From: Rhizobium sp. FKY42
Lineage (GTDB): Bacteria; Pseudomonadota; Alphaproteobacteria; Rhizobiales; Rhizobiaceae
Direction: 5' to 3'
DNA length: 64,000 nt
Assembly (NCBI RefSeq): GCF_005222835.1
Contig: NZ_STGA01000003.1
Location: 1-64,000 of the forward strand
Positions within the stretch are counted from its first letter, which is position 1; each line of letters starts with the position of its first letter. Below, piece by piece: positions 26,339 to 43,243 of this stretch. The notes under the pieces were generated by a model. The model ran no database searches. It was not told the DNA's origin and saw only the letters and a program-made list of their open reading frames with translations. The translations under genes were made by a program, and so were the position numbers.

Positions 26339-27010
26339 TCAGGCGAATAAGCCTTGTGGAGTTTTCTCCGATGTCTTCGCAAAATGACTGAGATCCGACG
26401 TCAGTCGATCGATCTTCCCCTGATGAACGGCTGTGAGGAAGTCACGAAGTGGACGATCATTGTATTCAGCCAGAACCGGTCGATAGGCCTTTAGGGCACG
26501 AGCCGTCATCAAGGAGCCATAACCCTGCGGTTGCGGCCGGACCCGATAATGGTTTTCAACGAGATCGGGCCAGGCGTCGGCAAGGAACGTGATCGCAAGA
26601 GCAATCTTGCGCTCATATGTCGAGCGTAAGGTTTCCGCATCGATATCGAAGCAGTCAACCAACCGCTTCTGGAAGATGATGTCACCCCTGTCGTATTCAG
26701 ACGAGATTTCATGGATGCTCAATCCGTGCGGTTCACCATTCAGCCAGGCCGTCAAGTTGGGATTTAGGCCCCGACCATAAGGGAGAAGGCTAGTGTGCAG
26801 GTTGATTGCGCGGATGCCCGCCATCTGTGGATGGTCCACTGGCAAATGGCGGTTATATCCGAAGCTTATAAGCAGATCGAACGGCTGCGATTTATGATCC
26901 TCAATCGGATCATAACCTGAAAACTGGCTCACATAGCGAACCGTTGCGTTGGTGGCAGGCAAAGCATACGCAATGGCTTCCGAGAACTGGCTCAGTACTA
27001 GGATGTTCAT
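26339..27010 (-). CDS. Formyltransferase-fold enzyme of the NRPS cluster
   Basis: This 223-residue protein has the formyl-transferase fold: an N-terminal MNILVLSQFSEAIAYALPAT strand-helix, the catalytic INLHTSLLPYGRGLNPNL (Asn-His) and the aspartate in EYDRGDIIFQK. These residues in methionyl-tRNA formyltransferase and PurN use 10-formyltetrahydrofolate to formylate an amine. It is much shorter than Fmt and lacks the tRNA-binding domain, so a small-molecule substrate is likely. It is the last gene of the minus-strand NRPS operon, 58 bases after the tautomerase. It may N-formylate the product; the formyltransferase in the gvg locus for formylaminooxyvinylglycine is a possible parallel. Function inferred. 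Confidence 0.82.
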   Translation of the reverse strand: MNILVLSQFSEAIAYALPATNATVRYVSQFSGYDPIEDHKSQPFDLLISFGYNRHLPVDHPQMAGIRAINLHTSLLPYGRGLNPNLTAWLNGEPHGLSIHEISSEYDRGDIIFQKRLVDCFDIDAETLRSTYERKIALAITFLADAWPDLVENHYRVRPQPQGYGSLMTARALKAYRPVLAEYNDRPLRDFLTAVHQGKIDRLTSDLSHFAKTSEKTPQGLFA

Positions 27011-27068
27011 CGAAGGTCAGTTCCCTGCTGGCTTCAAGGCTCTATCAGGTCGCGGTGCAAGCATGCCC

Positions 27069-27278
27069 TTAGGTTTGCTTGGACTGTAGGTTGCGCTTGA
27101 TTTCAGCGACGCTTAGGCCGCCCACGGCAATATGCGTATCAGGGAGTTCATGGATCGAAACGAAGTAAAGATGCTTCGGAATACCGGTGACTTCGACTGC
27201 CACGTCAGTGAGGCGGGTTAAGAGTTCTGCCTTGACGTCTTCGCTCATGGCGCCTGCTTCGAACGTGATAACGGGCAT
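27069..27278 (-). CDS. 4-oxalocrotonate tautomerase-like protein
   Basis: The 69-residue protein begins MPVITFEAGAMSEDVKAELL, giving the N-terminal proline that is the general base in the 4-OT superfamily once Met is removed, and continues TRLTDVAVEVTGIPKHLYFV. Size and pattern fit small tautomerases acting as hexamers or dimers. It starts 89 bases after the NRPS stop. In an oxyvinylglycine-type pathway it could shift an enol/imine double bond; this is inference from context. Confidence 0.8.
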   Translation of the reverse strand: MPVITFEAGAMSEDVKAELLTRLTDVAVEVTGIPKHLYFVSIHELPDTHIAVGGLSVAEIKRNLQSKQT

Positions 27279-27367
27279 TTACAAATTCCTTTTGGTTCAT
27301 CTGGCGGAGGTGGAACCGGCGGACGCCTGATTGCGCCGCCGATCGTGTTTCTTGTCGCGCTTGTTGA

Positions 27368-30300
27368 TCAGTGCGTTCTGATGAGGTTCTGCAATTCTGC
27401 CACCTTCCAGACGCCAAGTGGATCATCCACCAGGACCGCATGCTCTCCAGGTATCTCTGTCAGCTTGAAGCCTGACGAGGTCAGGTTAGCCCAGTCCAGC
27501 ATCGCACGCTTGGAGACGCCTGCGTCCTGCTGAGGCCAGACGGCGGTGATCGGGCACTCAGAAAGAACATCGAGGCGAGGAGTCCACGTAGTCGCTATGG
27601 CGGCCATGCCACGCAGAGCCTTGAATACGGGAACCAGAATTTCTTCATTCTCCAGAAAGCTCTGTGGCATGGACTTCAGGCGGACCAACTCTGCCTTCAG
27701 TTCGACATCCGTCATTTCGTGGTAGAGAGGAGCACGCGCATCCTGCGCCGGAGCGCCAGATCCGATGAAGACCATCGCGCGCGGACCGACTTCCAGACGG
27801 CATGCAACTTCGTAGGCAAGGATTGCACCGAAGCAACCTCCAACGAAGATCATTGGTTCGTTGCCGAGCAACCTGACCGCTTCCGTGAGGGAAGCCATAA
27901 ACCGCTCGAACCCGAAACTTGCAGGATTGCCGTCGAACTCCGGCCAACGAAGAGCATGGACGCTGACATCGTCGCCGACGAGGTCGCACCAGGGGTCGAA
28001 GATGGATCCGGCGACACCGACAGGTTGGAAACCGACGATGCGCAGGCGTGGAGGATAGTGCCTGGGTGCCGTCAATTCGATAAAGCTCAAGTTAATCGTC
28101 GAATTTCCAGCCTTTTGCTCGACGAATCGCTCCAGTTCGCCAAGCGTCTGCAAAGGCAGGAACTCGCACAACGGGAAGGCAATACCCAACCGATCGATCA
28201 ACTTCCGCGCCAGTTGAACCTTTTCAAGGGATCCCAAAGCATGATCGGACAGGCGAGCGGACGGCGAGGGCAGTTCGCCAATTGCATCGCGCAGCACTGT
28301 GTGCAGGTGCAACGTCGGGCCGCTTCTGTTAGCGCCGACATTCGATACGGCCGACCCCAACCATTCGGCAACGACTGACCTGAATGAGGATGTCAGTCGC
28401 TCCACCGTTGCAGCGTCCAGGCGTTTGGCATCGTATTGGAAGCCGAGTACGAGGCTGTCGCCGGAGAGATCCCAATCGACAGAGAGCGGAACCATAGCGT
28501 CTACCGCAAAGAACCGTTGCTCGGTTTCGTGCACATCCCCGCGTTTGCTGTCCGGTTCGGCAAACTGGATGAAGTTGAAGACCGTGTCAAAATGTGCTGC
28601 TGAACCAAACCACTCGGCGAGGCGTTCGAATGAAGCTGCCTTATGCTGGAAGGCGGAACGGTCAAACCGATCGAATTGTCTTGCTTCCTCCCGCAGGTCC
28701 ATACGTGGGCCGGTCGGCACCGGCAGTACATTCAGGAAGTTGCCAATCGCAAGCAGGGATCCCTCGACCTCCGGGCGCAAGGAAAATACGACACCAATAC
28801 GGCTCGGGCGCTCACCAAGGGCGCGAGTCAGAGCCTCAATGTTCATCGCAAAGAAAAGGCCCTTGGTGGACACATCGCCCATATGGTCGATCTGGTTCAG
28901 ACGCCGGAAGACTTCCTGCGATTGAAGGACATCAACCTGTCGCATATCAGCGCTGTCTGCGAGTGCACGCGGTGGCGCCAATGGGCGGAAGGGAAGGCCT
29001 TCGAGCCTCTCTCCGAAGAAGGATCTGCTCGCCTGCGATTGATCGGTGGCACTTTGCTCAGCCTCCACGGCGGCGAACACTGCGAGATCATCCGTGGTTT
29101 CAACCTTTAACCCGCGGAACCGTTCGACCAGTTCGCGGATGATGGCATTGAGGCTGTAGCCATCAAGAGCAGCATGATGCTCTGCCACAAGAAGATCGAA
29201 ACGCTCCTTGTTGCGCTTGACCACCTTGAAACGGACCAGATTTCCGTCAGCCAGAGGAAACGGCTTTTCGCGCTCATCAAAGACTTCCGCCTTTATGATC
29301 CGTTCCTGCTCGGCTATCGCTGCAGCGGAAACATCAAGATAGGAATAATTTCCATTTGCGCGCTCCGGATTGAAAACGAAATCGACGCGATCGCCCGATA
29401 GCTCGACATGCGCCGTCAAGATAGGATGCACCTTTCGAATGGCTGTCAGGGCGTCGGAAAACGCCGCGGCGCTAAATGGCAGATGTACAGGTGTGATCGT
29501 GGCGTTATGGTAGACTTTGGCATCCTGTCTTGCTGCCGTGGCCGAAAGTTTCAACCTTTGCATGCCTGTCGCAGGCCACCGTCGTTCAACCGCAAGCGCA
29601 GCGGTCGGCGGCGCGACTGGGGCGGTGGCCGGAGAGGGCACAGCCGGAACCATCGCTGTGGACGGATGGGGGACTGGCTGCGAACCGCCCAGGAGGGCCA
29701 CGACCGTAGGACGGGCATGAAGGTCGCGAAGAGTGATGTTGATGCCAACAGCCCGTGCCTTCGACTGCATGAGGATCGCGCGGATGGAATCTCCTCCGTT
29801 GACGAAGAAATCGTCCTCTTCCGTCAACTGGGGCCTACGGAGAACGTCTCGCCATATTGCCAACAATGCATGCGTTGCTTCAGGAGCGGCAGGAGACCCG
29901 GATGCAGGACTTGGTTCGGCAATCCTGACCGGGATTGGAGGTTGTGCGTCAGGCACACTGATCGTAGCCAGCAGCCCCATGACGGTCGGACGGGCATGGA
30001 GGTCGCGGAGAGTGATGTTGATACCAGCAGCCCGTGCCTTTGACTGCATGAGGATAGCGCGGATGGAGTCACCGCCGTTTACGAAAAAATCGTCTCGCTC
30101 GGTCAGTTGAGGTCTGCGGAGCACCTCCCGCCAGATAGAGAGCAGGGCTTCGGGCTTTGGTTGTTCCTGAGTGACGATTTCCGGCCGGATCGCCAGTGGG
30201 TTCGAAGAACTGTCACCGACTGGTGCCAGGATATTTGCGGAAACTGTATCCATCTCGGTCTCTTCTTCCAACGAGGAAAGGATCGCCGCCTTGTCAAGCT

Positions 30301-33300
30301 TGCCTTGAGGCGTGCGTGGTATATGCGACACGACGCGCAGGGCGCGCGGAACCATGTAGGGCGGGAGTTCGGCTTGCAGTGCTGTCCGGAGACTGCTGCT
30401 GGTAACGCCACCGAAAAGGCGATGAACAGTCGACGGGATCGTGATGTGTTGCCGAGGCTCTGCCAAATCGGTCCGCCAGGCCACGAGGTTCCAACGGTCG
30501 GTGCTTTGGAGTAACGGGTCTTGACGTAGATCGACCTGAAACCCGGCCTGTTCCAGCATAGCGGAAATGACGGCGCCCCGACCGGCAGTTACGCCGGAGG
30601 GATCGTCATGCAGTTCCATCGAAATGGCGCGAATCCTGCGAAGATGACGCTCATCGATACCGCGCAGGACATCCAGCTCTGCTCGTTGCACATCAATCTT
30701 CAGGACATCGATCCTGTCTAGCCCGTTTTCATCGAAGACGTCCGACAGGCGTCGCAACCGGCAGTCGTGGATCTGAGCCTCAAAACGGCCTTCCAGAACC
30801 TCTTCGATATGGTCGGCAAGCAAGCGTGCTTCGCCATCACCTTCGTTGGCAGCGTTACCAAGATAGGTTGTGATGACGGATTTTTCGGCCCCGGCATCGG
30901 CATAGTCGCGCTGGCCGGACATCATCGCGTAGCCAGGATAGTAGGTAAAGCCGACCTCACGCTCACTGTCCGATAGGCCATAGGGCAAGATCGTGACGTT
31001 GCGCGCATATCTTGCGATATTGTTGGCCAGCTTTTCACGGATTGGCGCAAGCGGTTCAAAGGAAAATATTCTTGCCCGTGGAATGTGGGATGCGACGAAC
31101 AGCGAAAACAGGCCGAGGTTCGCTCCAACGTCAAAGACGACTGCGTCTTCCGGATAAATGATACGAGGATCGGTGTAGATCTGGTCTTCAAAGATCTCGC
31201 GAAACTGATAGCGCGTTTCCGATGCGTTGATACTCGCTATCCTGTGGCCTGTTGGCAGATCGACGTAAACCGCATCCGGAAGATCCGGCAGCTTGCTCTC
31301 TTCGCGCGGCACGACAGCCGCCACGATCCGTGGATTGCCTTCCTGACTTTTGTCGATGAGGACAACAGCCTCCGCAATACCCGGCTGGCGCGACAGACAG
31401 GCCTGGATCTCGCCCAATTCCAGTCTTTGTCCACCTACCTTGACCTGATCGTCGCGGCGTCCAATGAAGGCAATCGTGCCGTCGGCTAGCTGACGACCAT
31501 AATCGCCCGTGCGATACGTCCTTACGCCATTCGGCAACGATCTGAAGCGCAGATTGTCCTTTTCAAAAGCGCCGATATAGCCAAGCGCCACACCTCTGCC
31601 GGCGATCATGAGTTCACCCGCAGCTCCTTGCGGCAACTCATTGCCGGATGCATCGACCACCGCAACAGAGATCCCTGCGAGGGGGTAGCCAAGTGTCGGG
31701 GCTTCATGGTCCTTGACACGAGCGACGAGCGTGTTGACCGTCGCCTCGGTCGGGCCATAAACGTTCCAGGTATCGGTATTGCTCCAATTGCGTGCTTCCT
31801 GCCAAAGAGCCGCGTCGAACGCTTCGCCACCCACCAGCAGGCGCTTTGGCATCTTCCCTGGATCGGATCCGAACCCTGCTGAAATCATCGCCCGAAGGAT
31901 GGTCGGTGTCACGTCGAGCGCATCGAGTTGCATATCAGCAGCAAACTGGATCATGGCCTCCGGGTCGGCGCGGATTTCGGTCGGCACCGGCACGAGGGTA
32001 TGGCCCAGCATGATCTGGAAGACCTGCTTCATTGAGGAATCGAACGCAAGCGGTGCGTTGATGGAAAGCCTCAGTCCAGTTGCGGTTCTGCCATAAATCC
32101 TGTCCTTGAGAGCATCGACGAGGTTGAGGACGCTCGACTGTCGGACAGCCACACCTTTCGGTTCGCCGGTTGAGCCGGACGTAAAGAGGATGTAGGCTTC
32201 GTCTTCACCCGATCCGGCAAAATTGGCCATTGGCTGCGGCCCGTGTCCGATCGTAGGCAAGACCTTGTCCGGCATGATCCGGCTTGCGCGCTCGAACTCT
32301 CCCGCTTCCGCAACGGCACCAAGGGCATCTGACTTGATCGCGATGTGCCGAATACGCTCGTCGGGATATTCCCGTAGAACCGGAACTGGAGTTAATCCAG
32401 CTCTCAACGTTCCAAGCAGCGAGACCACGGCGCCGAAGGATCGATCTGCAAAAAGGAGTATGCGTCCTTTCGGACCGAACTTCTTCTGGAGGGTGCTTGC
32501 CAGACGTTCGGCAGCATCGCGCACTTCGCCGAAACTATAGCTACGATCCGCTATGAGCGCCGTTCTGGTTGGATCGTCGAGCGCAAGATCTTCGAAACGT
32601 TTCCAGATCGTGCCCTCTATGGGTGAAATCGGCGCGAAAGCTGGAGGTGCCAAACCGGCCAGCTGCGACCCGCTGCATTCCCTGTTGCTGACGGTGCGTG
32701 TGATCGCGTCTGCCGTCCGTTTTGCCAGGTCCGCAAGTACGGCCGGAGATAGGCTGGAGACGCGGGTCGACAGTTCGACATCGGTCCGCCCGTCCGACAG
32801 CCGCAGCGACAGAACGATTGGCGCTGCTGGAGATTCCCGGAAAGAGAGCGTGGCCGCGGAAAACAGTGGGTGAAGATCCGGAATCGTCACAATCGATATG
32901 ATGACAGACGGATCGACAGGTGCAGATGCGGCACCGGTCGCAATGGTAAGCGCAATTTGATCCAGCTGATTTTCGATTGCCTCAGACGATTCCTGAGGTT
33001 GCGGAATGACGCGAGAAACAGTCAGCGGGGCAACGAGCCGAAACGGCCCGGCCATGCCTGAAAACTCACTGAAGAGACGACCATCGGTACTCAGTGCAAC
33101 CGTTATGCTATCACTCGGATCTTCGGCGAAGTAGGGTGCAAGCACCGCAAGACCGGCAAGACACGCTTCCGCTGATCCGAGGCGGCCGGGATGGCTCACC
33201 GTGGAGCTCGACTGCTGCAAGATACCCTTTTCCAGAGGCACTCCAAGGTCCAGATCCGTGATGGGAGCAGCGGTCTTCGGCGGGTTGTCGTTCTTCGCCT

Positions 33301-33802
33301 GGAGAGCCCATTCCGAAAAATGCTGGTAGGTCAGTGTCGAGATTGCATCGTCCCGCGAAAGAAGGAGAAGAAGCCCATCCGGGTCTGTCACATCCGTCGG
33401 GGCGAGCAGGGCGAGGCGGTTGATTTTTTCGCTATCTCCCTCCATCAGGATTCGAAGTGTTTCGGTCGCCTCGCGGTCAAACGGCTGGATCAACTGTCGC
33501 TCAAACGCATCTGCCGAGGTCTCGCAGATCCATGCCACACGGCCATCGCCCGGAACCTGCAGAGAAACAGGCGGTTGACCAAAGGTGACGATACGGGTGG
33601 TCAGCATTGCCTGGGAGGCAATCCTTTTCGTCAGAAACGCAACGACTTCATCTCTGTCAACGGGCTCCGGCCAGCGGAGCTGGACTGATGACACTTGCCG
33701 GAGACCGCTGCGGCCTGTGCCGGCGATGGCTTCCTGCAAGGGTGAAAGTGGATAGCCTTCTATCAGCACGGATGTCTCGGCAGTATCGATCTGGGAATTC
33801 AT
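27368..33802 (-). CDS. NRPS: degenerate C, A with inserted FkbM methyltransferase, T, T, C, T, TE (AmbE-like)
   Basis: 2144 residues. 1-385: condensation-like domain whose HHxxxDG position reads SRDDAIS, so inactive. About 400-835 and 1135-1175: adenylation domain (A3 YILFTSGSTGEPKG at 537-550; final lysine in PQGKLDK). Inserted at about 845-1115: FkbM-type methyltransferase (DVGANLG at 891-897). 1215-1280 and 1310-1372: two nearly identical carrier domains with NGGDSI (Ser1246, Ser1339). 1408-1820: condensation domain, HHAALDG at 1542-1548. About 1835-1895: third carrier with LGSLEKV (Ser1858, no preceding Asp). 1918-2140: thioesterase with Cys1990 (GGCFGA) and His2121. Specificity residues D-S-K-D-L-G-V-V-N resemble the glutamate code. 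Architecture and length recall AmbE of Pseudomonas. The start overlaps the preceding oxygenase stop (ATGA). Confidence 0.9.
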   Translation of the reverse strand: MNSQIDTAETSVLIEGYPLSPLQEAIAGTGRSGLRQVSSVQLRWPEPVDRDEVVAFLTKRIASQAMLTTRIVTFGQPPVSLQVPGDGRVAWICETSADAFERQLIQPFDREATETLRILMEGDSEKINRLALLAPTDVTDPDGLLLLLSRDDAISTLTYQHFSEWALQAKNDNPPKTAAPITDLDLGVPLEKGILQQSSSTVSHPGRLGSAEACLAGLAVLAPYFAEDPSDSITVALSTDGRLFSEFSGMAGPFRLVAPLTVSRVIPQPQESSEAIENQLDQIALTIATGAASAPVDPSVIISIVTIPDLHPLFSAATLSFRESPAAPIVLSLRLSDGRTDVELSTRVSSLSPAVLADLAKRTADAITRTVSNRECSGSQLAGLAPPAFAPISPIEGTIWKRFEDLALDDPTRTALIADRSYSFGEVRDAAERLASTLQKKFGPKGRILLFADRSFGAVVSLLGTLRAGLTPVPVLREYPDERIRHIAIKSDALGAVAEAGEFERASRIMPDKVLPTIGHGPQPMANFAGSGEDEAYILFTSGSTGEPKGVAVRQSSVLNLVDALKDRIYGRTATGLRLSINAPLAFDSSMKQVFQIMLGHTLVPVPTEIRADPEAMIQFAADMQLDALDVTPTILRAMISAGFGSDPGKMPKRLLVGGEAFDAALWQEARNWSNTDTWNVYGPTEATVNTLVARVKDHEAPTLGYPLAGISVAVVDASGNELPQGAAGELMIAGRGVALGYIGAFEKDNLRFRSLPNGVRTYRTGDYGRQLADGTIAFIGRRDDQVKVGGQRLELGEIQACLSRQPGIAEAVVLIDKSQEGNPRIVAAVVPREESKLPDLPDAVYVDLPTGHRIASINASETRYQFREIFEDQIYTDPRIIYPEDAVVFDVGANLGLFSLFVASHIPRARIFSFEPLAPIREKLANNIARYARNVTILPYGLSDSEREVGFTYYPGYAMMSGQRDYADAGAEKSVITTYLGNAANEGDGEARLLADHIEEVLEGRFEAQIHDCRLRRLSDVFDENGLDRIDVLKIDVQRAELDVLRGIDERHLRRIRAISMELHDDPSGVTAGRGAVISAMLEQAGFQVDLRQDPLLQSTDRWNLVAWRTDLAEPRQHITIPSTVHRLFGGVTSSSLRTALQAELPPYMVPRALRVVSHIPRTPQGKLDKAAILSSLEEETEMDTVSANILAPVGDSSSNPLAIRPEIVTQEQPKPEALLSIWREVLRRPQLTERDDFFVNGGDSIRAILMQSKARAAGINITLRDLHARPTVMGLLATISVPDAQPPIPVRIAEPSPASGSPAAPEATHALLAIWRDVLRRPQLTEEDDFFVNGGDSIRAILMQSKARAVGINITLRDLHARPTVVALLGGSQPVPHPSTAMVPAVPSPATAPVAPPTAALAVERRWPATGMQRLKLSATAARQDAKVYHNATITPVHLPFSAAAFSDALTAIRKVHPILTAHVELSGDRVDFVFNPERANGNYSYLDVSAAAIAEQERIIKAEVFDEREKPFPLADGNLVRFKVVKRNKERFDLLVAEHHAALDGYSLNAIIRELVERFRGLKVETTDDLAVFAAVEAEQSATDQSQASRSFFGERLEGLPFRPLAPPRALADSADMRQVDVLQSQEVFRRLNQIDHMGDVSTKGLFFAMNIEALTRALGERPSRIGVVFSLRPEVEGSLLAIGNFLNVLPVPTGPRMDLREEARQFDRFDRSAFQHKAASFERLAEWFGSAAHFDTVFNFIQFAEPDSKRGDVHETEQRFFAVDAMVPLSVDWDLSGDSLVLGFQYDAKRLDAATVERLTSSFRSVVAEWLGSAVSNVGANRSGPTLHLHTVLRDAIGELPSPSARLSDHALGSLEKVQLARKLIDRLGIAFPLCEFLPLQTLGELERFVEQKAGNSTINLSFIELTAPRHYPPRLRIVGFQPVGVAGSIFDPWCDLVGDDVSVHALRWPEFDGNPASFGFERFMASLTEAVRLLGNEPMIFVGGCFGAILAYEVACRLEVGPRAMVFIGSGAPAQDARAPLYHEMTDVELKAELVRLKSMPQSFLENEEILVPVFKALRGMAAIATTWTPRLDVLSECPITAVWPQQDAGVSKRAMLDWANLTSSGFKLTEIPGEHAVLVDDPLGVWKVAELQNLIRTH
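29699..30151. repeat. Internal duplication of the carrier-domain coding sequence
   Basis: The segments at about 29699-29872 and 29978-30151 encode two carrier domains of the NRPS that differ at only a few residues (for example ARAAGINITL versus ARAVGINITL). Their DNA is also closely similar, with mostly silent differences, so one is a recent copy of the other. A proline/alanine-rich linker separates them. Confidence 0.85.
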
Positions 33803-34830
33803 TGCACACTCCTCGAGACCAGTGTCGTCATGGACACAAGGGTCGTACGCTTGCCGGTGAATGGAGCGCGGCCGTGGAGGCAGATCAGATTGTCCAGTGC
33901 CAACACATCATGTCGCTGCCAGTCGAAGGTTCTCGTTTCCTCAGCGTAGACTGCCCGGATGTCGTGGATCATTGCATCGGGTATGGGCGACCCGTCACCG
34001 AAGAAAACGCGACGAGGAAGGTTCTCTGTGCCGAACTCTTCAATCAGTGATGCGAGAACTCCAGGCGGGAGGGTCGCGGTATGAAAAAGATGCGCGTGGT
34101 TGCAGAACAGTTTATCGCCGGTCGCAGGCACCTTTACGAATGCTTTCTGGCGTTGGCGCGTACGAAGATGTTCGGGCCCAAGCCATTCGAATTGCGTGCC
34201 GTTGGCTTCACAATAGGCTGCAACATCTGCTCTGTCTTCCGTCTGGAAAGCAGACCGCCAGTCCATGTCGATTTCCGGACGGAAATTGCGTTCGTAGAGA
34301 ACGCCTCGTTCTTCAAAGACTTTCAGGATCGCGGGATCGAATTTGGCGGTCGCCGCCCGCTCGTCGGCAAGCGGTGTGGCGCCGCCGGTTTCTGCAAGTG
34401 TTTCGGCAAAAAAGAAGATACGTTCCGGCAGGTCTCGGGCAAACGACATTTCATGATGCAGATCAATGAAATGATCGGAGGAAAATTCCGTAGAGGTGAA
34501 TACTCCAGGAGATACTTCGGAGCGGACTGCGGCGCGCTCGAGATAGGGCAATCGGTCGCGGCCAAAGGCTCTTACCCCTTCGCCAAAGGCATCGGGAGTA
34601 TTCACTGAAAAGCCTCGAAGCAGTACTCCGCCTGCTTTCGCCATCAGCGTTTCGAGAGCGCTTCGGTGCTGCGAAACCCATGAGCCGAGTTCGACAAGGC
34701 CGGAGGGAGCATTGAGAATTGCCACGAATTCGCGGTCAGGGTCGACGTATCCTTCCGGTTTCAGGCCGATGCTCATGCCCCTTTCATAGAGGCGCGGCTT
34801 CAGGACGGGGGCTGAAAAATGTGCAGCCAT
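33799..34830 (-). CDS. SyrP/TauD-type Fe(II)/2-oxoglutarate oxygenase (second of two; AmbD-like)
   Basis: This 343-residue protein of the TauD/clavaminate synthase-like family has the metal triad H125-x-E127 (LHHEMSF) and H319 (CLHGRAPFTGKR), with arginines after the distal His for 2-oxoglutarate. The HxE rather than HxD ligand set is typical of SyrP-like hydroxylases that act on carrier-bound amino acids. It starts one base after the TGA of the other oxygenase, with GTCAGGAGAAC upstream, and its own stop overlaps the NRPS start. Context points to oxidation of the amino acid held on the NRPS. Confidence 0.88.
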   Translation of the reverse strand: MAAHFSAPVLKPRLYERGMSIGLKPEGYVDPDREFVAILNAPSGLVELGSWVSQHRSALETLMAKAGGVLLRGFSVNTPDAFGEGVRAFGRDRLPYLERAAVRSEVSPGVFTSTEFSSDHFIDLHHEMSFARDLPERIFFFAETLAETGGATPLADERAATAKFDPAILKVFEERGVLYERNFRPEIDMDWRSAFQTEDRADVAAYCEANGTQFEWLGPEHLRTRQRQKAFVKVPATGDKLFCNHAHLFHTATLPPGVLASLIEEFGTENLPRRVFFGDGSPIPDAMIHDIRAVYAEETRTFDWQRHDVLALDNLICLHGRAPFTGKRTTLVSMTTLVSRSVQ

Positions 34831-34831
34831 T

Positions 34832-35902
34832 TCAGTTCTCCTGACTAAAAAATTGGAGTGGAGATTTCAGTGGTTCACGCAGCGAAGTGTAAGGACGAGC
34901 CATCAAAGTGAGGATCTTGCGTTCACCCGTGAACGGCTCGCGGCCGTGCTGCATCAGCATGTTGTCCAGCAGCAGCACGTCATCGACCTCCCAAGGGAAC
35001 CGACGTTTCGCTGCCGCGACTGCGCTGCGCATGGCCTCAATTTCTTGGCTTGAAAAGGCCTCGCCGTCGCCGAACGCGGTGTCTGTGGGAACATTGTCCA
35101 ACCCGACGGCGTCGATCAGCGCCTTCGCAATCTCTGCATCGAGACTAGTGTGATGAAAGAACAGGGCATGGTTGAACCAGACCAGTTCCTGCGTCACGGG
35201 ATGTATCTGAAACGCGGAGCGGTACTGCCTCGTCTTCAGTCTATCCTCGGCGTCCCATTCGAACTCGATGTCGCGCTCCCGGCAAAACTGTTCGACGTCA
35301 CGGCGATCATCGGTTTGAAATGCGGTTTGCCAGGATACGCCAAGACCCGGCGTGTAGGTGCGCCGGTAGAGGACGCCCTTGTGACGGAATTTTTCCACGA
35401 GTTCCGGGGGCAGACCTTTGAGGATAGCCCGATTGCTTGCAATAGGGGTGGCGCCCATGGTTGCGGCAGGCACTTTGCACCAGAAGCAGATGAAACGTGG
35501 AAAGTTGAGCGTGTATGATTGTTCCGAGTGCATTACGATCTCCTGATCGGCAGGATGATCTGTTGAGGTGTAGACCCGGTCTGCCACGGCATGCCGCGGG
35601 GACGACCGCTCCGAATAGTTCAGTATTTCGGGGTCCAGGGCTTCCACTGTCTGGAAAAATCGTTGCGCATCACCAACCTGGAAGCCACGGAGCAAGACCG
35701 CGCCAACTGTGGTCAAGGCGGCGGCTATCGTATCGCGAGTGGCGGAGACGAATTGGACCGAATCACTTTTGCCGGGCGAGGCTCTCAACGTGACATAGGG
35801 TTCAATTTTCTCGGTCGGAGCACTCTTTGATAGATTTTGCTCTCCAAGAATCAATTTTTGAGGGTATTGAGCGGCGAAGGATGGCTTGTTCGATGGCGTC
35901 AC
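34832..35902 (-). CDS. SyrP/TauD-type Fe(II)/2-oxoglutarate oxygenase (first of two; AmbC-like)
   Basis: About 356 residues from GTG 35902, which follows a strong AGGAGGAGA at 8 bases. The longer open frame to 36055 would overlap the adenylation gene and has no such site. With this start the metal ligands are H125-x-E127 (MHSEQSY) and H319 (MQHGREPFTGER), the same numbering as in the neighbouring paralogue, which supports the choice. The two share WRSAFQTEDR/WQTAFQTDDR and FGDG stretches and arose by duplication. Two such oxygenases in a row are a hallmark of ambC-ambD. Confidence 0.88.
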   Translation of the reverse strand: MTPSNKPSFAAQYPQKLILGEQNLSKSAPTEKIEPYVTLRASPGKSDSVQFVSATRDTIAAALTTVGAVLLRGFQVGDAQRFFQTVEALDPEILNYSERSSPRHAVADRVYTSTDHPADQEIVMHSEQSYTLNFPRFICFWCKVPAATMGATPIASNRAILKGLPPELVEKFRHKGVLYRRTYTPGLGVSWQTAFQTDDRRDVEQFCRERDIEFEWDAEDRLKTRQYRSAFQIHPVTQELVWFNHALFFHHTSLDAEIAKALIDAVGLDNVPTDTAFGDGEAFSSQEIEAMRSAVAAAKRRFPWEVDDVLLLDNMLMQHGREPFTGERKILTLMARPYTSLREPLKSPLQFFSQEN

Positions 35903-35949
35903 TGCGACGTCTCCTCCTGAAATTGGCTTGCGAAGATTGTTTACCGGTC

Positions 35950-37497
35950 TTAGCCGAGGGCAGCTTGCTGGTGCAGTAGTGCACGTCGGTCGAGCTTGTC
36001 GTGCCGCCCAAGGGGCAACGTATCGACCAACCGGAATTTCGAGGGACGCATCCATTCCGGCAGCCTATTCGTCACGGCTTTGCGGATTTCCGCATCAAGA
36101 GCCGAATGGTCCTCCTCGGTTGATGCCATGACCCAGGCGACGAGTTCGGCCCGGTCGATCTGCCCTGCCGTACAAGGGCAGAGCCGAACTTCTGCACGAA
36201 GAACACCGGGCACTTGGCAGATGGCATGGGTAATCTCCTGCGGCTCGATCCTGAAACCGCGCCACTTGATCTGATCATCCAGCCGTCCCGCGAAGTGCAA
36301 ACTGCCGCCATCATCTTTCCAGGCTCTGTCGCCTGTGCGGTAGAGCCTCTCCCCATGACGGACCTCGAACCTATCGACTCGATGGGCCTCGGGCCGAGCG
36401 CCCGGCACCGGGTGCGGCGGGCTCGCAAGTCCGACACCCATGAGACACAGTTCCCCAACGACATGGGGTGCCATTTCATGGCCGTCCTGATCGAGGACCA
36501 GCGCGACATGTCCCGGTAGGGCCACGCCAATCGGCACGTCGCCATACCGGCTCACATCTGCAAGTGTGTCAGACGTGAGCGGTTGAGCGGTCGAGTAGAC
36601 TGTATCTTCTGTCGGCCCGTAGAGATTCCAGACGCGTTTGGCACCAGCTGCAAATAGTTTCTGGACAAGGCCCGGCGGCGTCGCTTCTCCAGCCAGCAAG
36701 ATCTCCTCGATCCCGGTCATGTCGACGTCAAACCGCATGAGCGCTGCCATGGCGGAAGGAACGCCTGCGATGAGCGTTAGCTGGTTTCTGTCAGGGAGGT
36801 CCGCAAGCGAGAGAATGGACGGAACAAGTTCGAGACATCCACCTGCTGAAAGAGTAGCAAAGATTTCGAAGATCGAGACATCGAAGGAGAAAGGAGTCGA
36901 ACAGAGTGTTCGTTTCAGACCTGTCTGTCCAAACGTATCGAGAGCCCAATCCATCAGATTGGCAGCCGCTTCATGGTTGATCGCCACCCTCTTGGGCATA
37001 CCAGAAGAACCCGACGTAAAAATCGAGTAAGCCAGCGCTTCGGGTTCGGGTATCGCCCATTGGTCGATCGCACGCGATGTCTTCAGCTTGGATAGGAGAT
37101 GTGTTTCGATTTCCGCGTCGTAGCCGGGTTGCGAGACCTCGTCGACCAGAAGCATACGACAGCCGACATCATTGAGGCATCTGATGTTGCGCTCAATCGG
37201 GTTGCGCGGGTCCAGTGGCAACCAGTGAGCACCGCAGGCGAGGATCCCTAGCATCGCAGCGATTGCATCCGCAGTTCTGGAGGTGAGCAGTCCGACCCCT
37301 TCACCGTCAGTTATCCCCAGGCGCTGAAGGCCGCCAGCAATTTTCATTGCCTTATCCGCAAGGTCACCATAGCTGACGATCAGTCCGGGTGCTTTGATGG
37401 CGCTTATTGATCGCATCTCTGCGCTCAGGAAATGAGCGAAAATCCGCTGATGAAGGAAATATAATTTATCAGAGGCGCGATCTATATTACAATTCAT
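35950..37497 (-). CDS. Stand-alone NRPS adenylation enzyme (AmbB-like, without T and C domains)
   Basis: This 515-residue protein is a complete adenylation domain: SIFTSGSSGMPKRVAI (A3), FSFDVSIFEIF (A4), NLYGPTEDTV (A5), RLYRTGD (A7), GRLDDQIKWRGFRIEPQEI (A8) and the catalytic lysine in GRHDKLDR (A10). No carrier or condensation domain follows before the stop. The pocket residues read D-V-F-A-L-A-L-V-Y, a combination I cannot assign. It would have to load a carrier of the large NRPS in trans. It is the first gene of the minus-strand operon, beginning at ATG 37497 beside an AT-rich intergenic region. Confidence 0.88.
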   Translation of the reverse strand: MNCNIDRASDKLYFLHQRIFAHFLSAEMRSISAIKAPGLIVSYGDLADKAMKIAGGLQRLGITDGEGVGLLTSRTADAIAAMLGILACGAHWLPLDPRNPIERNIRCLNDVGCRMLLVDEVSQPGYDAEIETHLLSKLKTSRAIDQWAIPEPEALAYSIFTSGSSGMPKRVAINHEAAANLMDWALDTFGQTGLKRTLCSTPFSFDVSIFEIFATLSAGGCLELVPSILSLADLPDRNQLTLIAGVPSAMAALMRFDVDMTGIEEILLAGEATPPGLVQKLFAAGAKRVWNLYGPTEDTVYSTAQPLTSDTLADVSRYGDVPIGVALPGHVALVLDQDGHEMAPHVVGELCLMGVGLASPPHPVPGARPEAHRVDRFEVRHGERLYRTGDRAWKDDGGSLHFAGRLDDQIKWRGFRIEPQEITHAICQVPGVLRAEVRLCPCTAGQIDRAELVAWVMASTEEDHSALDAEIRKAVTNRLPEWMRPSKFRLVDTLPLGRHDKLDRRALLHQQAALG

Positions 37498-37677
37498 TTC
37501 AATATCTATAACCTAAATAATAATTTTATATATTTTTATATATAAAATATTTCCATATAAAGAATCTATAAAGTTATTTATATCAGAAGGGTGCAATTTC
37601 TACTTAGTTAAAATTTATAGTTGATTTCGCGTAGCTGTAGTCCCAAGGAGGCGTCTTGAAAAGCAGATTCATGTTGC
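37498..37677. promoter_or_regulatory. AT-rich divergent promoter region of the NRPS operon and MocR gene
   Basis: This gap is strikingly A+T-rich in a GC-rich window. It contains an inverted repeat ATTTTATATA (37523-37532) and TATATAAAAT (37539-37548), and must carry both divergent promoters. The composition is typical of horizontally acquired islands and of silencer-bound DNA. Within it, AAGGAGG at 37644-37650 precedes TTG 37656, which opens a 10-codon frame ending TAG at 37686-37688, overlapping the start of the MocR gene: a possible leader peptide. Confidence 0.6.
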
Positions 37678-39078
37678 GTGACACTTAGGGAGGATACCAT
37701 TCGCCTCGAATCTCCATGGATTCCTCGTCTGTCGGCGGGCGGTGGAAAGATACATGACCGTATCGCAACTGCTTTGGCGGAGGATATTGTCGAAGGCCTG
37801 GTGCCGGCAGGCGCTCGATTGCCTGCACACAGAGATTTGGCGTACCGACTCGGTGTCGGCGTCGGCTCGGTCTCTCGCGCCTATCTGGATTTGGAACGCA
37901 GAGGTTTGGTGCGGAGCGAGCATGGACGAGGAATGTTCGTATGCGTCCAGGCGGTTCGTGAACGCGGATATACGGATCTGTCTGTCAATATCCCGCCACC
38001 GGTGCTCGGTCATCAGATTCTTGTTGCAAGTTTCCAGGCGCTTGCTGGGGATATCACGGCAGAAGATTTCGGTCACTATCGGCCGGCGTCGGGTAATTCG
38101 GATGATCGGCGAATGATTGCCGGTTGGCTCCATCAGGTGGGCATCGATGCACCGATCGAGCGGATCTGCATCACAAACGGAGCACAACATGCATTATCAG
38201 TCGCATTTTATGCGGCGTGCGGCCCCGGTGGAACGTTGTTTACCGAGGAGGTGAGTTATCCAGGAGCCATCCAGGCGGCAAGATATCTCGGATGCAAGCT
38301 GGTCGGTTTGCCGATCGATGAACAGGGTCTTGTTCCGGCCTATCTCGATTCAGCACTTGCTGCGAGTGACCGGACCTCCAATCGGGTGATCTATGTAACT
38401 CCGACCCTGCACAATCCGACCACTGCGACGATGGAGATGGCACGACGCCAGGAGATTGTCGATGTGTGCCGGGCACATGATGTGTTGATCGTTGAAGACG
38501 ATGTCTATTCGCTTTTCACGCCACCTGACTGCAAGCCGCTGGTGACGTTGGCGCCGGAACGGGTTTTCTACATCAATGGCTTTTCAAAGATGGTTTCTCC
38601 AGGCCTGCGTGTCGGCATCATCGTTGCGCCGCTGGCCTTGGCGGACCGCACCCGTTCAGGTCTTCAAGCAACAACGTCGATGGCGTCACCAATCTTTTGC
38701 ATGCTCTTAAATTTCTGGTTACGGGAAGGGGTGATCGCCTCGGTACGTGCCACTGTTCGGGAGGAGGCTGAACAACGCGTTCGTCTTGCCCGTCACCATT
38801 TGCCGGATGCCTGTCTTCCACTCGAGGGCGGCAGTTTGCATGCATGGTTGCCAATGGCGCCTCTCGCCGCGGAACAAGTGGCAGAGCGCGCTGCGGCGTC
38901 AGGTGTTCTTGTCAGTCCGCCATCTGTTTTCATGGTGGATCGTCAACCAGCAAAGACGGGATTGAGGTTGTGCCTTGGTGCTCCTAAACGGTCGGAGCTG
39001 GACGCAGCGTTGGCGCTCTTGGCAAAGATCTCCGGCAAGCCTTTGGTCGTGACTTCGGAAAATTTTATCGGCGTCTAA
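37678..39078 (+). CDS. MocR/PdxR-type GntR regulator with aminotransferase-like domain
   Basis: This 466-residue protein has an N-terminal GntR winged helix (RLPAHRDLAYRLGVGVGSVS, RAYLDLERRGLV) joined to a fold-type I aminotransferase-like domain with the PLP lysine in NGFSKMVSPGLRVG (about residue 304). MocR regulators bind PLP or PLP adducts to sense amino acids. The first in-frame start is GTG 37678, and a short leader frame with a strong ribosome site overlaps it. It is divergent from the NRPS operon and probably controls it and the LysE exporter gene. Oxyvinylglycines inactivate PLP enzymes, so direct sensing of the product by this protein is an attractive inference. Confidence 0.9.
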   Translation: MTLREDTIRLESPWIPRLSAGGGKIHDRIATALAEDIVEGLVPAGARLPAHRDLAYRLGVGVGSVSRAYLDLERRGLVRSEHGRGMFVCVQAVRERGYTDLSVNIPPPVLGHQILVASFQALAGDITAEDFGHYRPASGNSDDRRMIAGWLHQVGIDAPIERICITNGAQHALSVAFYAACGPGGTLFTEEVSYPGAIQAARYLGCKLVGLPIDEQGLVPAYLDSALAASDRTSNRVIYVTPTLHNPTTATMEMARRQEIVDVCRAHDVLIVEDDVYSLFTPPDCKPLVTLAPERVFYINGFSKMVSPGLRVGIIVAPLALADRTRSGLQATTSMASPIFCMLLNFWLREGVIASVRATVREEAEQRVRLARHHLPDACLPLEGGSLHAWLPMAPLAAEQVAERAAASGVLVSPPSVFMVDRQPAKTGLRLCLGAPKRSELDAALALLAKISGKPLVVTSENFIGV

Positions 39079-39126
39079 CATGAAACGTATATCGATCGCT
39101 AACGCGGGTAGGCACACATCCTGAAG

Positions 39127-39138
39127 TGTATCGATACA
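39127..39138. promoter_or_regulatory. Perfect 12-bp palindrome upstream of the LysE gene
   Basis: TGTATCGATACA lies in the 140-base gap between the MocR gene and the LysE gene, about 80 bases before the LysE start. A palindrome of this size fits a dimeric regulator, and the MocR-type protein is the nearest candidate. I did not find the same sequence in the NRPS/MocR intergenic region. Confidence 0.35.
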
Positions 39139-39218
39139 TGATTGTGATTTACGGCAAGTGTCTCGATCGGTAACCAGAAGAAGTTACACGAAGCTTTCTT
39201 CAAGAGCGAGACATCGCG

Positions 39219-39812
39219 ATGCCAGATCAGTTTATCGCATTTGCGATCTATGCTTTTGTTACGTCAATAACTCCTGGGCCGAACAACACGATGCTGCTCG
39301 CTTCCGGTGTGAACTACGGCCTCGTACGATCCATTCCGCACATCATGGGCGTTTCCCTTGGTTTTGCACTGATGGTGTTGGTAATCGGGGCAGGTCTTGG
39401 AGAAATCTTTCTTGCCGTGCCGCAGGCGCAAACCGCCCTGCGCTGGATTGGTTGCCTTTATCTGCTATGGCTGGCTTGGAAACTTGCCACCTCCGGCCCG
39501 ATGGACAATGAAACGCAGGAGGCCCGCCCACCTCTGACGTTTGCAGAAGCTGCGTTGTTTCAATGGGTGAATCCGAAATGTTGGGTCATGGCGATGGGTG
39601 CGCTGACGACCTATTTGCCGGAAAGCGCCTCTTTGTGGAGCGTCGCCGTCCTCGCGCTTGCATTTGCACTCGTCAATGCCCCCAGTGTCGGCAGTTGGGC
39701 GGCATTTGGAACGATCCTGAGAGGTTGGCTATCTTCTCCTAAGCGTATGCGCGCCTTTAACATCGTCATGGCGCTACTGCTGGTTGCCTCTCTTCATTCG
39801 ATTATAAGCTGA
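39219..39812 (+). CDS. LysE/RhtB-family amino-acid exporter (AmbA-like)
   Basis: This 197-residue inner-membrane protein has six predicted helices and the LysE signature VTSITPGPNNTMLLASGVNY. Other segments are ALRWIGCLYLLWLAWKLATS and the QWVNPKCWVMAMGA loop after the cytoplasmic region. The family exports amino acids and analogues. Located next to the NRPS cluster's regulator, it is the likely exporter and self-protection gene for the product, as AmbA is for AMB. The role is inferred from context; family assignment is firm. Confidence 0.88.
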   Translation: MPDQFIAFAIYAFVTSITPGPNNTMLLASGVNYGLVRSIPHIMGVSLGFALMVLVIGAGLGEIFLAVPQAQTALRWIGCLYLLWLAWKLATSGPMDNETQEARPPLTFAEAALFQWVNPKCWVMAMGALTTYLPESASLWSVAVLALAFALVNAPSVGSWAAFGTILRGWLSSPKRMRAFNIVMALLLVASLHSIIS

Positions 39813-39958: not shown

Positions 39959-40276
39959 ATGATGTCGAAAGCCCCAATTAGCACTGTGCTGCTCGCCGGT
40001 GCAATCACCTCTGCACTATCGACGCTTGCAATCGCCGGTCCCCTTACCAAAGCGGAAGCCGACGCTGCCGTGGCGGCCAAGAAAGAAAAGTGCTTTGGCG
40101 TTTCGCTCAAAGGTCAGAATGATTGCGCAGCGGGTCCAGGCACCACCTGCCAAGGCAGTTCGACCAAGGACTTCCAGGGCAATGCATGGAAGTTTGTCCA
40201 GGGAGGCACCTGCACGTCGCTTCAGTTGCCCGGTGATCGCAAGGGCTCGCTGACGCCCTTGACACGCGACACCTGA
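39959..40276 (+). CDS. bufA1: Bufferin precursor BufA1 (DUF2282)
   Basis: This 105-residue exported peptide has a signal sequence ([17 protein letters not shown]) followed by the DUF2282 region with four cysteines (C45, C56, C64, C85) in [23 protein letters not shown] and GGTCTS. Bufferins are ribosomal peptides whose cysteines are converted to thiooxazoles by an MNIO enzyme and that bind copper in the periplasm. The downstream MNIO and DUF2063 genes are exactly the required maturation pair. GGAG lies six bases ahead of ATG 39959. Confidence 0.88.
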
Positions 40277-40304
40277 GTTCAAGCTGGTGGGAGCGGAGGG
40301 CCGA

Positions 40305-41231
40305 ATGGCCAGAACGCATTTGATACGGCAGCAGCCGGCCGGCAAGGCTGAAACTCTCCGCTTTACCCCTCTTCGTGTAGTCGGTCAGGCCGGTACGAGT
40401 TTCAAGCCGGAGCATTTTGCAGCCATCCTCGAGGATCCGCCGCAACAGGGGTTCTTCGAGGTCCATGCCGAAAACTACATGGGTGCTGGCGGTCCTGCGC
40501 ATGCGTCGCTGGAATCTATCCGGCGAGACTATCCTGTATCCATTCACGGAGTCTGCATGTCGCTGGGCGGGCCATCACCCTTGGACCCGCAGCATCTTGA
40601 GCGTTTCAGACTACTTGTTGAGCGTTACGAACCTGCGATGGTTTCTGAGCACCTCGCCTGGTCGACCCATGAGAATGTCTTCTTCAACGACCTGCTTCCA
40701 CTGCCTTACAATCTGACAACGCTTCTGCATGTCTGTGAGCATGTCGACCGGATGCAGGCCACGATAAAGCGACGGATTTTCCTGGAAAACCCATCAACCT
40801 ATGTCGCGTTCGAGCATTCGACGATGAGTGAAACCGATTTCCTCGCTGAAGTCGTCAAAAGAACCGGCTGCGGCCTCCTGCTCGACATCAACAATGTCTT
40901 TGTATCTGCGGCCAATCATCGTTTTTCACCCATGACCTATCTGGAATCCTTTCCGCTCGCTGCGGTCGAGCAGGTGCATCTGGCCGGTCACACGGAGCAG
41001 TTGGACAGTGAGGGCCAACCGGTGCTGATCGACAGTCACGACGGTCCCGTCTCCGATGCGGTCTGGCAACTCTACGAGACAATCATCAATCGTTGCGGTC
41101 CTGTTCCCACATTGATCGAATGGGATAGTGAAATCCCCGACTGGCCTGTGTTGCGCGCCGAAGCGCTTGCCGCTCAGCAAATTCTGGACCGTCATGGTGC
41201 GACAGGGCAGGTGCGTGATGCCGCAGAATAA
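40305..41231 (+). CDS. bufB1: MNIO-family peptide-modifying oxidase BufB (DUF692)
   Basis: This 308-residue multinuclear non-haem iron oxidative enzyme has a TIM-barrel with the metal-ligand motifs EVHAENYMG, SEHLAW, LLLDINNVFV, VHLAGH and LIEWD. In bufferin systems it turns precursor cysteines into thiooxazole heterocycles. ATG 40305 has GGAGG five bases ahead, and is preferred over GTG 40287, which overlaps that very site. Its end overlaps the next gene by 14 bases. Confidence 0.9.
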   Translation: MARTHLIRQQPAGKAETLRFTPLRVVGQAGTSFKPEHFAAILEDPPQQGFFEVHAENYMGAGGPAHASLESIRRDYPVSIHGVCMSLGGPSPLDPQHLERFRLLVERYEPAMVSEHLAWSTHENVFFNDLLPLPYNLTTLLHVCEHVDRMQATIKRRIFLENPSTYVAFEHSTMSETDFLAEVVKRTGCGLLLDINNVFVSAANHRFSPMTYLESFPLAAVEQVHLAGHTEQLDSEGQPVLIDSHDGPVSDAVWQLYETIINRCGPVPTLIEWDSEIPDWPVLRAEALAAQQILDRHGATGQVRDAAE

Positions 41232-42021: not shown

Positions 42022-42517
42022 TATGACACGGACTGGAAACCGCTCAGCTGTCACCAGCCTGGGAAAAGCAACTGCGATTGCACTTTCACGCATTCAACGG
42101 CTGGCTCAACCGGATGTGGTCTCACTGATTGTTCGACTTGGTCTCGCAATTCCTTTCTGGAGGTCCGGGGTTCTGAAGTGGGATGGCTTCCTGCAACTCA
42201 GTGATACGGCGATAGACCTCTTCAGCCAGGAATTCATGCTCCATCTACCCGGAGGACCCTATCCCTATCCAATGCCTATGTTGATGGCGTTCCTGTCTGG
42301 ATGCGGTGAGGTCGTCTTCTCGGCGCTCCTCGTGGTCGGTCTGGCGACACGTTTTGCATCACTTGCTCTGCTGGCCATGACGCTTGTCATACAGATCACC
42401 GTTCCTGACGGCTGGCCAATCCACTTGACCTGGGCGGCCATGGCGCTTTGCCTTATGCGATTGGGAGCGGGTCGCGTCTCCCTTGATCACATCGTCTGCC
42501 GGACCGTGAAGCCGTAG
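42014..42517 (+). CDS. DoxX-family membrane protein of the bufferin operon
   Basis: This 167-residue protein has four predicted helices: VVSLIVRLGLAIPFWRSGVL, MLMAFLSGCGEVVFSALLVV, LALLAMTLVIQITV and HLTWAAMALCLMRLG. DoxX proteins accompany bufferin and other MNIO operons, presumably in a redox step. Starts at ATG 42014, inside the end of bufC. Confidence 0.85.
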   Translation: MTDMTRTGNRSAVTSLGKATAIALSRIQRLAQPDVVSLIVRLGLAIPFWRSGVLKWDGFLQLSDTAIDLFSQEFMLHLPGGPYPYPMPMLMAFLSGCGEVVFSALLVVGLATRFASLALLAMTLVIQITVPDGWPIHLTWAAMALCLMRLGAGRVSLDHIVCRTVKP

Positions 42518-43242: not shown

Positions 43243-43243
43243 C

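What the first reader, a model, noticed from the sequence alone, without database searches (positions are those of the whole stretch)
26339..39812. AMB-like oxyvinylglycine NRPS cluster in a Rhizobiaceae genome, with a formyltransferase and a tautomerase added
Read in transcription order, the minus-strand operon is adenylation enzyme, SyrP/TauD oxygenase, second SyrP/TauD oxygenase, large NRPS, with a LysE exporter beside it. This is the order and content of ambB-C-D-E plus ambA, the P. aeruginosa genes for the toxic antimetabolite AMB (L-2-amino-4-methoxy-trans-3-butenoic acid). The large NRPS matches the AmbE architecture (degenerate C, A with methyltransferase, two carriers, C, carrier, TE). 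Differences are a minimal AmbB without carrier and condensation domains, a MocR regulator, and two extra genes, a formyltransferase and a 4-OT-like tautomerase. The product is probably a new oxyvinylglycine-like PLP-enzyme inhibitor.
Basis: partly seen in the sequence, partly recalled or inferred. Interest (0 to 1): 0.93.

Follow-up and report, generated by a model that had tools for sequence, protein, structure and literature searches.

The report
Formyl-capped AMB-type antimetabolite gene cluster
A rare eight-gene cluster in a relative of the soil bacterium Rhizobium rhizoryzae encodes relatives of the enzymes with which Pseudomonas makes the amino-acid poison AMB, but the alanine-adding half of one enzyme is missing and a formyltransferase gene is present, so it likely makes a formyl-masked version of that kind of poison.

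Summary
A minus-strand operon encodes a stand-alone adenylation enzyme, two TauD/SyrP-type oxygenases, a 2144-residue AmbE-like NRPS, a tautomerase and a formyltransferase; a MocR regulator and a LysE exporter lie divergently beside it. The NRPS is an AmbE relative: degenerate C (Q), Glu-coded A with inserted FkbM methyltransferase, two tandem carriers, C, carrier, TE. Its C domain's best solved match is AmbE's dehydrating C domain; of five residues reported to matter there, four are identical and the fifth is Arg to Lys. The same gene set occurs in Rhizobium rhizoryzae and Azospirillum sp. B21. Alkalilimnicola has an AmbB with A-T-C, and no formyltransferase or tautomerase in its cluster. In the four clusters whose DNA I saw, the formyltransferase occurs only where AmbB lacks carrier and condensation domains. 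Its nearest solved folds include the formylation domain of linear gramicidin synthetase. I infer that N-formylation of the carrier-bound, glutamate-derived residue replaces the alanine cap of AMB. All eight genes show purifying selection against R. rhizoryzae. Product, formylation substrate, tautomerase role and A-enzyme target are untested. Rare (2 of 394 Rhizobiaceae genomes drawn). New variant of a known kind.

The parts
26339..27010 (-). Stand-alone formyltransferase (223 aa), relative of PseJ and of the LgrA formylation domain
   Evidence: Formyl_trans_N 49.5 bits; N70, H72, D107 invariant in the 11 sequences aligned; fold PseJ/LgrA; dN/dS 0.14
27069..27278 (-). DmpI-like 4-oxalocrotonate tautomerase-family protein (69 aa), Pro2 present
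   Evidence: Tautomerase 43.9 bits; DmpI 61.6 bits, under its cut-off of 70; 59% identical in Azospirillum
27368..33802 (-). AmbE-like NRPS, Q-A(MT)-T1a-T1b-C-T3-TE, 2144 aa
32633..33802 (-). N-terminal Q domain: C-domain fold that lacks the HHxxxDG histidines (approximate limit towards the A domain)
   Evidence: AlphaFold2 pLDDT 85.5; Foldseek hits are C and X domains; motif
31298..32608 (-). Adenylation domain, nine code positions DSKDLGVVN, predicted Glu
30533..31141 (-). FkbM-type methyltransferase inserted in the A domain
   Evidence: Methyltransf_21 53.4 bits; TIGR01444 94.5 bits, over its cut-off of 37.7
29678..30151 (-). Tandem carriers T1a and T1b (54 of 70 residues identical)
28343..29587 (-). 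AmbE-type condensation domain, HHAALDG at residues 1542-1548
28133..28285 (-). Third carrier before the TE (ALGSL at residue 1855); approximate limits
27425..28036 (-). Thioesterase domain with Cys in the nucleophile motif (GGCFGA at residue 1988)
33799..34830 (-). Second TauD/SyrP-type oxygenase (AmbD position), HHE...H motif
   Evidence: TauD 120.9 bits
34832..35902 (-). First TauD/SyrP-type oxygenase (AmbC position), HSE...H motif, GTG start
   Evidence: TauD 128.9 bits (run on the longer ORF 34832-36055)
35950..37497 (-). Stand-alone adenylation enzyme, reads as an AmbB A domain without T and C
   Evidence: 42% to the Azospirillum A enzyme, 38% to the A domain of Alkalilimnicola AmbB
37678..39078 (+). 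MocR-type regulator (GntR plus aminotransferase fold), divergent
   Evidence: 52% identical in Azospirillum
39219..39812 (+). LysE-family exporter
   Evidence: 62% identical in Azospirillum

Best explanation
This is an AMB-type assembly line that likely makes an N-formyl-capped methoxyvinylglycine, with a stand-alone formyltransferase predicted to do the job that the carrier and condensation domains of AmbB do with alanine in Pseudomonas. Predicted steps. (1) The NRPS A domain loads Glu on the tandem carriers T1a/T1b (predicted from its code). (2) The two oxygenases hydroxylate C3 and C4, and the FkbM domain O-methylates the C4 oxygen (by homology to AmbC, AmbD and AmbE-MT). (3) The formyltransferase transfers formyl from 10-formyltetrahydrofolate to the alpha-amine of the carrier-bound residue (inferred). 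(4) The AmbE-type C domain dehydrates, and decarboxylation with a vinyl shift gives the enol ether; the tautomerase may assist here (inferred). (5) The stand-alone A enzyme keeps only AmbB's second job, charging the last carrier in trans with alanine or another small amino acid (inferred). (6) The TE releases a masked product, N-formyl-AMB or N-formyl-AMB-amino acid, which LysE exports (inferred). (7) MocR, whose sensor half is itself an aminotransferase fold, may sense the product or PLP status (inferred). Shown here: gene content, domain order, residues, conservation, co-occurrence and selection. Everything chemical is inferred.
For: AmbE relationship: best solved match of the C domain is AmbE 7r9x (117 of 413 aligned identical); H1497, D1726, D1734 and Q1747 are identical and R1605 is Lys, and these five positions are invariant in 9 of 9 family C domains aligned; family plus AmbE group at support 0.906; one code type, D-S/A-KD-L/M-G-V/L-VN, in 15 of 15 NRPS A domains examined, two Pseudomonas AmbE-like ones included. 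Swap: Azospirillum sp. B21 has A-only, TauD, TauD, NRPS, tautomerase, formyltransferase, then a phosphopantetheinyl transferase, MocR and LysE, and R. rhizoryzae has all eight; a metagenomic NRPS (P0009), formyltransferase (P0129) and A-only protein (P0142) are listed on contigs of one length, 14573. Alkalilimnicola has LysE, A-T-C AmbB, TauD, TauD, NRPS, and tblastn of its cluster region finds no formyltransferase, tautomerase or MocR; P. aeruginosa likewise has A-T-C AmbB in a five-gene cluster. The A-only protein is nearer to the A domain of Alkalilimnicola AmbB (38%) than to its own NRPS A domain (28%). The formyltransferase folds like PseJ and the formylation domain of LgrA, with N/H/D invariant. 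Trans-loading of AmbE T2 by AmbB-A is published. dN/dS 0.04-0.20 for the eight genes.
Against: No product, substrate or activity is known. The clade that holds the formyltransferase NRPSs has only 63% bootstrap support. PseJ, a sugar-type formyltransferase, is as near in fold as LgrA and nearer in sequence, and a sugar N-formyltransferase, Rv3404c, ranks third by Foldseek E-value. [quoted passage not shown] Later work on AMB gives Ala-AMB without a C-terminal alanine (passage), which leaves the A-only enzyme without a proven role. The Azospirillum NRPS lacks the Q domain.
Confidence: 0.5

Rival explanations
1. The formyl group sits on the amino acid that the stand-alone A enzyme activates: it charges one tandem carrier with alanine, the formyltransferase caps it as in LgrA, and the AmbE-type C domain joins it to the Glu-derived residue, giving formyl-Ala-AMB.
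For: The A-only enzyme is found with the formyltransferase and is under selection; extra carriers are present; that the LgrA F domain formylates a residue loaded by its neighbouring A domain is recalled, with entry titles that fit.
Against: The only C domain with HHxxxDG lies downstream of the tandem carriers, and the Q domain has lost the histidines and is absent in Azospirillum, so no domain is well placed for an Ala-Glu bond on T1.
Confidence: 0.2
2. The formyltransferase acts on a side-chain nitrogen or on the finished product, as GvgI presumably does for 4-formylaminooxyvinylglycine (FVG), rather than on a carrier-bound alpha-amine.
For: A formyltransferase gene was proposed as the marker of FVG clusters (passages); PseJ-type enzymes, which act on sugar nucleotides, are as near in fold and nearer in sequence than LgrA.
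Against: No carbamoyltransferase domain is among the cluster's proteins, and none of them has a domain known to me to build an N-O bond.
Confidence: 0.13
3. The cluster makes a dehydroamino acid or other modified glutamate without decarboxylation, not a vinylglycine; the tautomerase redirects the intermediate.
For: The C domain is only 28% identical to AmbE (117 of 413), and the tautomerase is absent from the Alkalilimnicola cluster.
Against: Four of five residues reported to matter in AmbE-C are kept, and both oxygenases, the methyltransferase and the Glu-type code are kept.
Confidence: 0.12
4. A decayed or silent acquired cluster with no current function.
For: Rare and patchy: 2 of 394 Rhizobiaceae genomes drawn.
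Against: All eight frames are open and dN/dS is 0.04-0.20; the MocR-side part of the intergenic region is nearly identical in R. rhizoryzae.
Confidence: 0.03

Closest known systems
AMB (methoxyvinylglycine) pathway ambABCDE of Pseudomonas aeruginosa
   Same: Q-A-MT-T-C-T-TE NRPS with Glu-type A domain and dehydrating-type C domain; two TauD-type oxygenases; AmbB-type A domain; LysE exporter; the four enzymes in the order B-C-D-E (order in Pseudomonas taken from the gene names)
   Different: AmbB lacks T and C; formyltransferase, tautomerase and MocR added; two tandem T1 carriers; Cys instead of the Ser of the Pseudomonas AmbE-like proteins P0024/P0025 in the TE motif; LysE in a separate, divergent unit
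Linear gramicidin synthetase LgrA, formylating initiation module
   Same: Formyltransferase of the same fold working with an NRPS (predicted here)
   Different: Here a separate protein; the sequence match is weak (E 1.1e-9); no F domain is fused to the NRPS
FVG pathway (gvg) of Pseudomonas fluorescens WH6
   Same: Formyltransferase and LysE genes, predicted oxyvinylglycine-type product
   Different: gvg is described (passages) without an NRPS; its carbamoyltransferase has no counterpart here by Pfam
Amb-like cluster of Alkalilimnicola ehrlichii (L010)
   Same: LysE, AmbB, TauD, TauD, same NRPS family (43% identical)
   Different: AmbB is A-T-C; no formyltransferase, tautomerase or MocR found in the cluster region; a single T1

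Membership tests
AMB (ambABCDE) pathway | AmbE-type NRPS with Q-A-MT-T-C-T-TE | tested here: met
   one extra T1
AMB (ambABCDE) pathway | A domain of AmbE activates Glu | tested here: inconclusive
   Code positions DSKDLGVVN are of the type in AmbE-like proteins P0024/P0025; the tenth residue, Lys, was assumed, the code table is recalled, activity not testable
AMB (ambABCDE) pathway | Dehydrating C domain with H1497, R1605, D1726, D1734, Q1747 | tested here: inconclusive
   Four of five identical, R1605 is Lys (residue list from passages of PMC10880069); activity not testable
AMB (ambABCDE) pathway | Two Fe(II)/alpha-ketoglutarate oxygenases | tested here: met
   Two TauD-family proteins with HxE...H; orthology to AmbC/AmbD themselves not tested
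AMB (ambABCDE) pathway | AmbB with A-T-C | tested here: not met
   A domain only
AMB (ambABCDE) pathway | LysE exporter AmbA | tested here: met
   39219-39812, opposite strand
AMB (ambABCDE) pathway | Product AMB | not testable with these tools
   needs LC-MS
FVG (gvg) pathway | gvg core genes incl. carbamoyltransferase gvgF | tested here: not met
   No carbamoyltransferase domain among the cluster's proteins by Pfam; gvg sequences themselves were not compared
FVG (gvg) pathway | Formyltransferase GvgI | tested here: inconclusive
LgrA-type NRPS formylation | Formyltransferase fold with N/H/D active site | tested here: met
   that N/H/D is the catalytic trio is recalled
LgrA-type NRPS formylation | Acts on carrier-bound aminoacyl | not testable with these tools
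   needs an in vitro assay
Rhizobitoxine (rtx) pathway | rtxA/rtxC-type genes | not tested
   Rtx sequences were not compared; gene identities recalled

The most novel reading that the evidence does not exclude
A second capping chemistry for oxyvinylglycine antimetabolites: a free-standing LgrA-like formyltransferase formylates the carrier-bound glutamate-derived residue, making AmbB's carrier and condensation domains dispensable, so the pathway exports an N-formyl (possibly N-formyl-dipeptide) pro-toxin that a deformylase would unmask.
Probability: 0.45. Interest if true: 0.75.

Novelty: new variant of a known kind. Interest (0 to 1): 0.6.

Why it matters
AMB biosynthesis is a small, well-studied line with open questions: why the residue must be capped, why AmbB also charges the last carrier, what the N-terminal Q domain does. 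Natural relatives that lack AmbB's T-C, carry a formyltransferase, duplicate T1, or (Azospirillum) lack Q are ready-made experiments on these points. The carriers seen are in Rhizobium and Azospirillum, where a PLP-enzyme inhibitor could affect ethylene synthesis, germination or competitors (inference).

Tried and rejected
Considered and rejected: an ordinary siderophore NRPS (the C domain matches AmbE far better than the five other solved sequences that passed E 1e-10); an FVG cluster (no carbamoyltransferase domain). A role of Q as recruiter of the two oxygenases, suggested by glycopeptide X domains among its fold hits, is kept only as an idea because Azospirillum lacks Q. Inferring absence of the formyltransferase from contig lengths in the protein listings was dropped: the Azospirillum case showed that the listed contig need not be the longest that holds a member (P0133 against L009), so only positive matches are used. 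A repeat search in 37480-37700 for a MocR operator gave only AT-rich inverted repeats, of no clear meaning. The 2018 in vitro AMB paper was not held. Literature searches list no paper whose title or shown abstract concerns an amb-type cluster with a formyltransferase; that library only, and most listed papers were not opened.

A weak formyltransferase hit on another contig there (41%, E 4.3e-9) was not followed. One of the 60 genomes, G046, has a single TauD hit (31%), not followed. The tree used the 45 best C domains from the 121 NRPS proteins held, plus AmbE; the other hits were left out. The alignment and the codes left out some family members (P0008, P0014, P0022, P0023 among them). The scan used two patterns that fit this family, not AmbE itself, so it is no census of AMB clusters, and the tool says that records near the window's genome may be left out.
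Full report
OBSERVATION. The window lies in an unnamed 4.9-Mb genome placed in the same genus as G016, whose 1,207,714-base contig has the length of the R. rhizoryzae DSM 29514 plasmid. In transcription order on the minus strand: adenylation enzyme (515 aa), TauD-type oxygenase (356 aa from a GTG), second TauD-type oxygenase (343 aa), NRPS (2144 aa), tautomerase (69 aa), formyltransferase (223 aa). Gaps between the last three genes are 89 and 58 bases, so one operon is likely. MocR and LysE run the other way.

THE NRPS IS AN AmbE RELATIVE. Pfam gives A, FkbM methyltransferase inside the A domain, two carriers, C and TE. A third carrier-like motif with its serine lies before the TE. The TE has Cys in the nucleophile motif; of ten proteins examined five have Cys and five Ser. 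The first 393 residues have no Pfam hit; an AlphaFold2 model (pLDDT 85.5) matches condensation domains and glycopeptide X domains, and the HHxxxDG histidines are gone.

CATALYTIC RESIDUES. The true C domain hits AmbE's dehydrating C domain (7r9x) at E 4.3e-34, then McyA at 9.6e-15. Of the five residues whose change to Ala is reported to cost AmbE most or all of its activity, four are identical and R1605 is Lys; all five positions are invariant in the nine family sequences aligned. D1728 is Met and E1736 is Asp. In a tree of 46 C domains the 17 family members plus three AmbE or AmbE-like sequences form a group with support 0.906. The nine NRPS A-code positions read are DSKDLGVVN; all 15 NRPS A domains examined, from the window, R. 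rhizoryzae, Azospirillum, Alkalilimnicola, other database relatives and the Pseudomonas AmbE-like P0024 and P0025, are of that type. That this is a Glu code is recalled, but AmbE is shown to load Glu (abstract).

RELATIVES. Homologues of the NRPS in a 5.8-billion-protein collection (best 120 of 779 listed) form a small group, P0008-P0023, followed by AmbE-like P0024/P0025 at 37% identity. P0018-P0023 lack the methyltransferase domain. A scan of 84,980 genomes with family patterns found two: Azospirillum sp. B21 and Alkalilimnicola ehrlichii. R. rhizoryzae DSM 29514 carries the NRPS on a 1.2-Mb plasmid at 92%. By family search the C domain is in 2 of 394 Rhizobiaceae genomes (own and G016), 1 of 82 of the Azospirillum genome's family (that genome itself) and 1 of 369 of the Alkalilimnicola genome's class (itself). 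The formyltransferase is in 1 of the same 82, the genome with the NRPS, and in 1 of 385 genomes of the window's class and 1 of 398 of its phylum, in both cases the window's own.

THE SWAP. Azospirillum has A-only, TauD, TauD, NRPS, tautomerase, formyltransferase, then a phosphopantetheinyl transferase, MocR and LysE; identities to the window for the eight shared genes are 42, 63, 59, 51-58, 59, 54, 52 and 62%. So formyltransferase, tautomerase and MocR appear to belong to the system. Alkalilimnicola has LysE, an AmbB with A, T and C (T only just under the Pfam cut-off), two TauD genes and the NRPS, with no formyltransferase, tautomerase or MocR by tblastn in the region searched; P. aeruginosa too has A-T-C AmbB in a five-gene cluster. 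The window's A-only enzyme is nearer to the A domain of Alkalilimnicola AmbB (38%) than to the NRPS A domains (Alkalilimnicola 31%, own 28%), so it reads as AmbB without its T-C half. A fourth set by equal contig length (14573) is NRPS P0009, formyltransferase P0129 and A-only P0142. Window and R. rhizoryzae are close relatives and count as one event.

THE FORMYLTRANSFERASE. Ten relatives passed E 0.001 among 194 candidates. N70, H72 and D107, the usual catalytic trio (recalled), are invariant. The model (pLDDT 87.2) matches PseJ (E 2.2e-14, TM 0.72), LgrA (3.7e-14; best chains TM 0.73) and the sugar N-formyltransferase Rv3404c (3.9e-14, TM 0.65). By sequence PseJ is nearer (1.7e-19) than LgrA (1.1e-9). 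So fold alone does not settle the substrate; the genomic swap does most of the work.

MECHANISM. In AMB synthesis Glu on AmbE T1 is hydroxylated at C3 and C4, O-methylated, capped with Ala by AmbB, dehydrated by the C domain, decarboxylated and released (passages of PMC8968710, and PMC10880069). AmbB also charges the last carrier with Ala in trans (section 23 of PMC4357302). The simplest reading is that formyl replaces the Ala cap. The tautomerase could help the vinyl shift or decarboxylation; it has Pro2 and is DmpI-like, but this is a guess.

SELECTION AND MOBILITY. dN/dS against R. rhizoryzae is 0.20 (A-only), 0.17, 0.08 (oxygenases), 0.15 (NRPS), 0.19 (tautomerase), 0.14 (formyltransferase), 0.15 (MocR), 0.04 (LysE). 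The main match with the R. rhizoryzae plasmid begins at about 25.6 kb; the stretch just left of it (about 24.4-25.65 kb, LysR and ChaC genes) matches other Rhizobiaceae plasmids, which fits an acquired or rearranged block.

LIMITS. No product is known; the evidence is comparative. Papers: PMC4357302 (abstract, outline, sections 17 and 23), PMC10880069 (4 passages), PMC8064604 and PMC8968710 (12 passages each); all others seen as search listings.

Noticed in passing
window 39959-43879 (+): Bufferin-type operon next to the cluster: DUF2282/BufA-like peptide, MbnB-family protein, DUF2063 protein, ECF sigma factor and NrsF.
   Followed up: no
window 56292-56900 (-): Sfp-type phosphopantetheinyl transferase, 40% identical over 173 residues to the one inside the Azospirillum cluster.
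   Followed up: partly
P0018-P0023 (database proteins): AmbE-family NRPSs without the methyltransferase domain, with one T1 motif found in each; a product without the methyl group would be expected.
   Followed up: partly
L009 6263-11857: The Azospirillum sp. B21 NRPS lacks the Q domain and has three tandem T1 carriers, 63-65 of 70 residues alike.
   Followed up: partly
G000 C52:134038-139756, C8:150529-151821, C18:92365-104543: Further condensation-domain proteins in the same genome, outside the window.
   Followed up: no
window 17931-23024 (+): 1697-aa protein with AAA ATPase, GAF and histidine-kinase domains.
   Followed up: no
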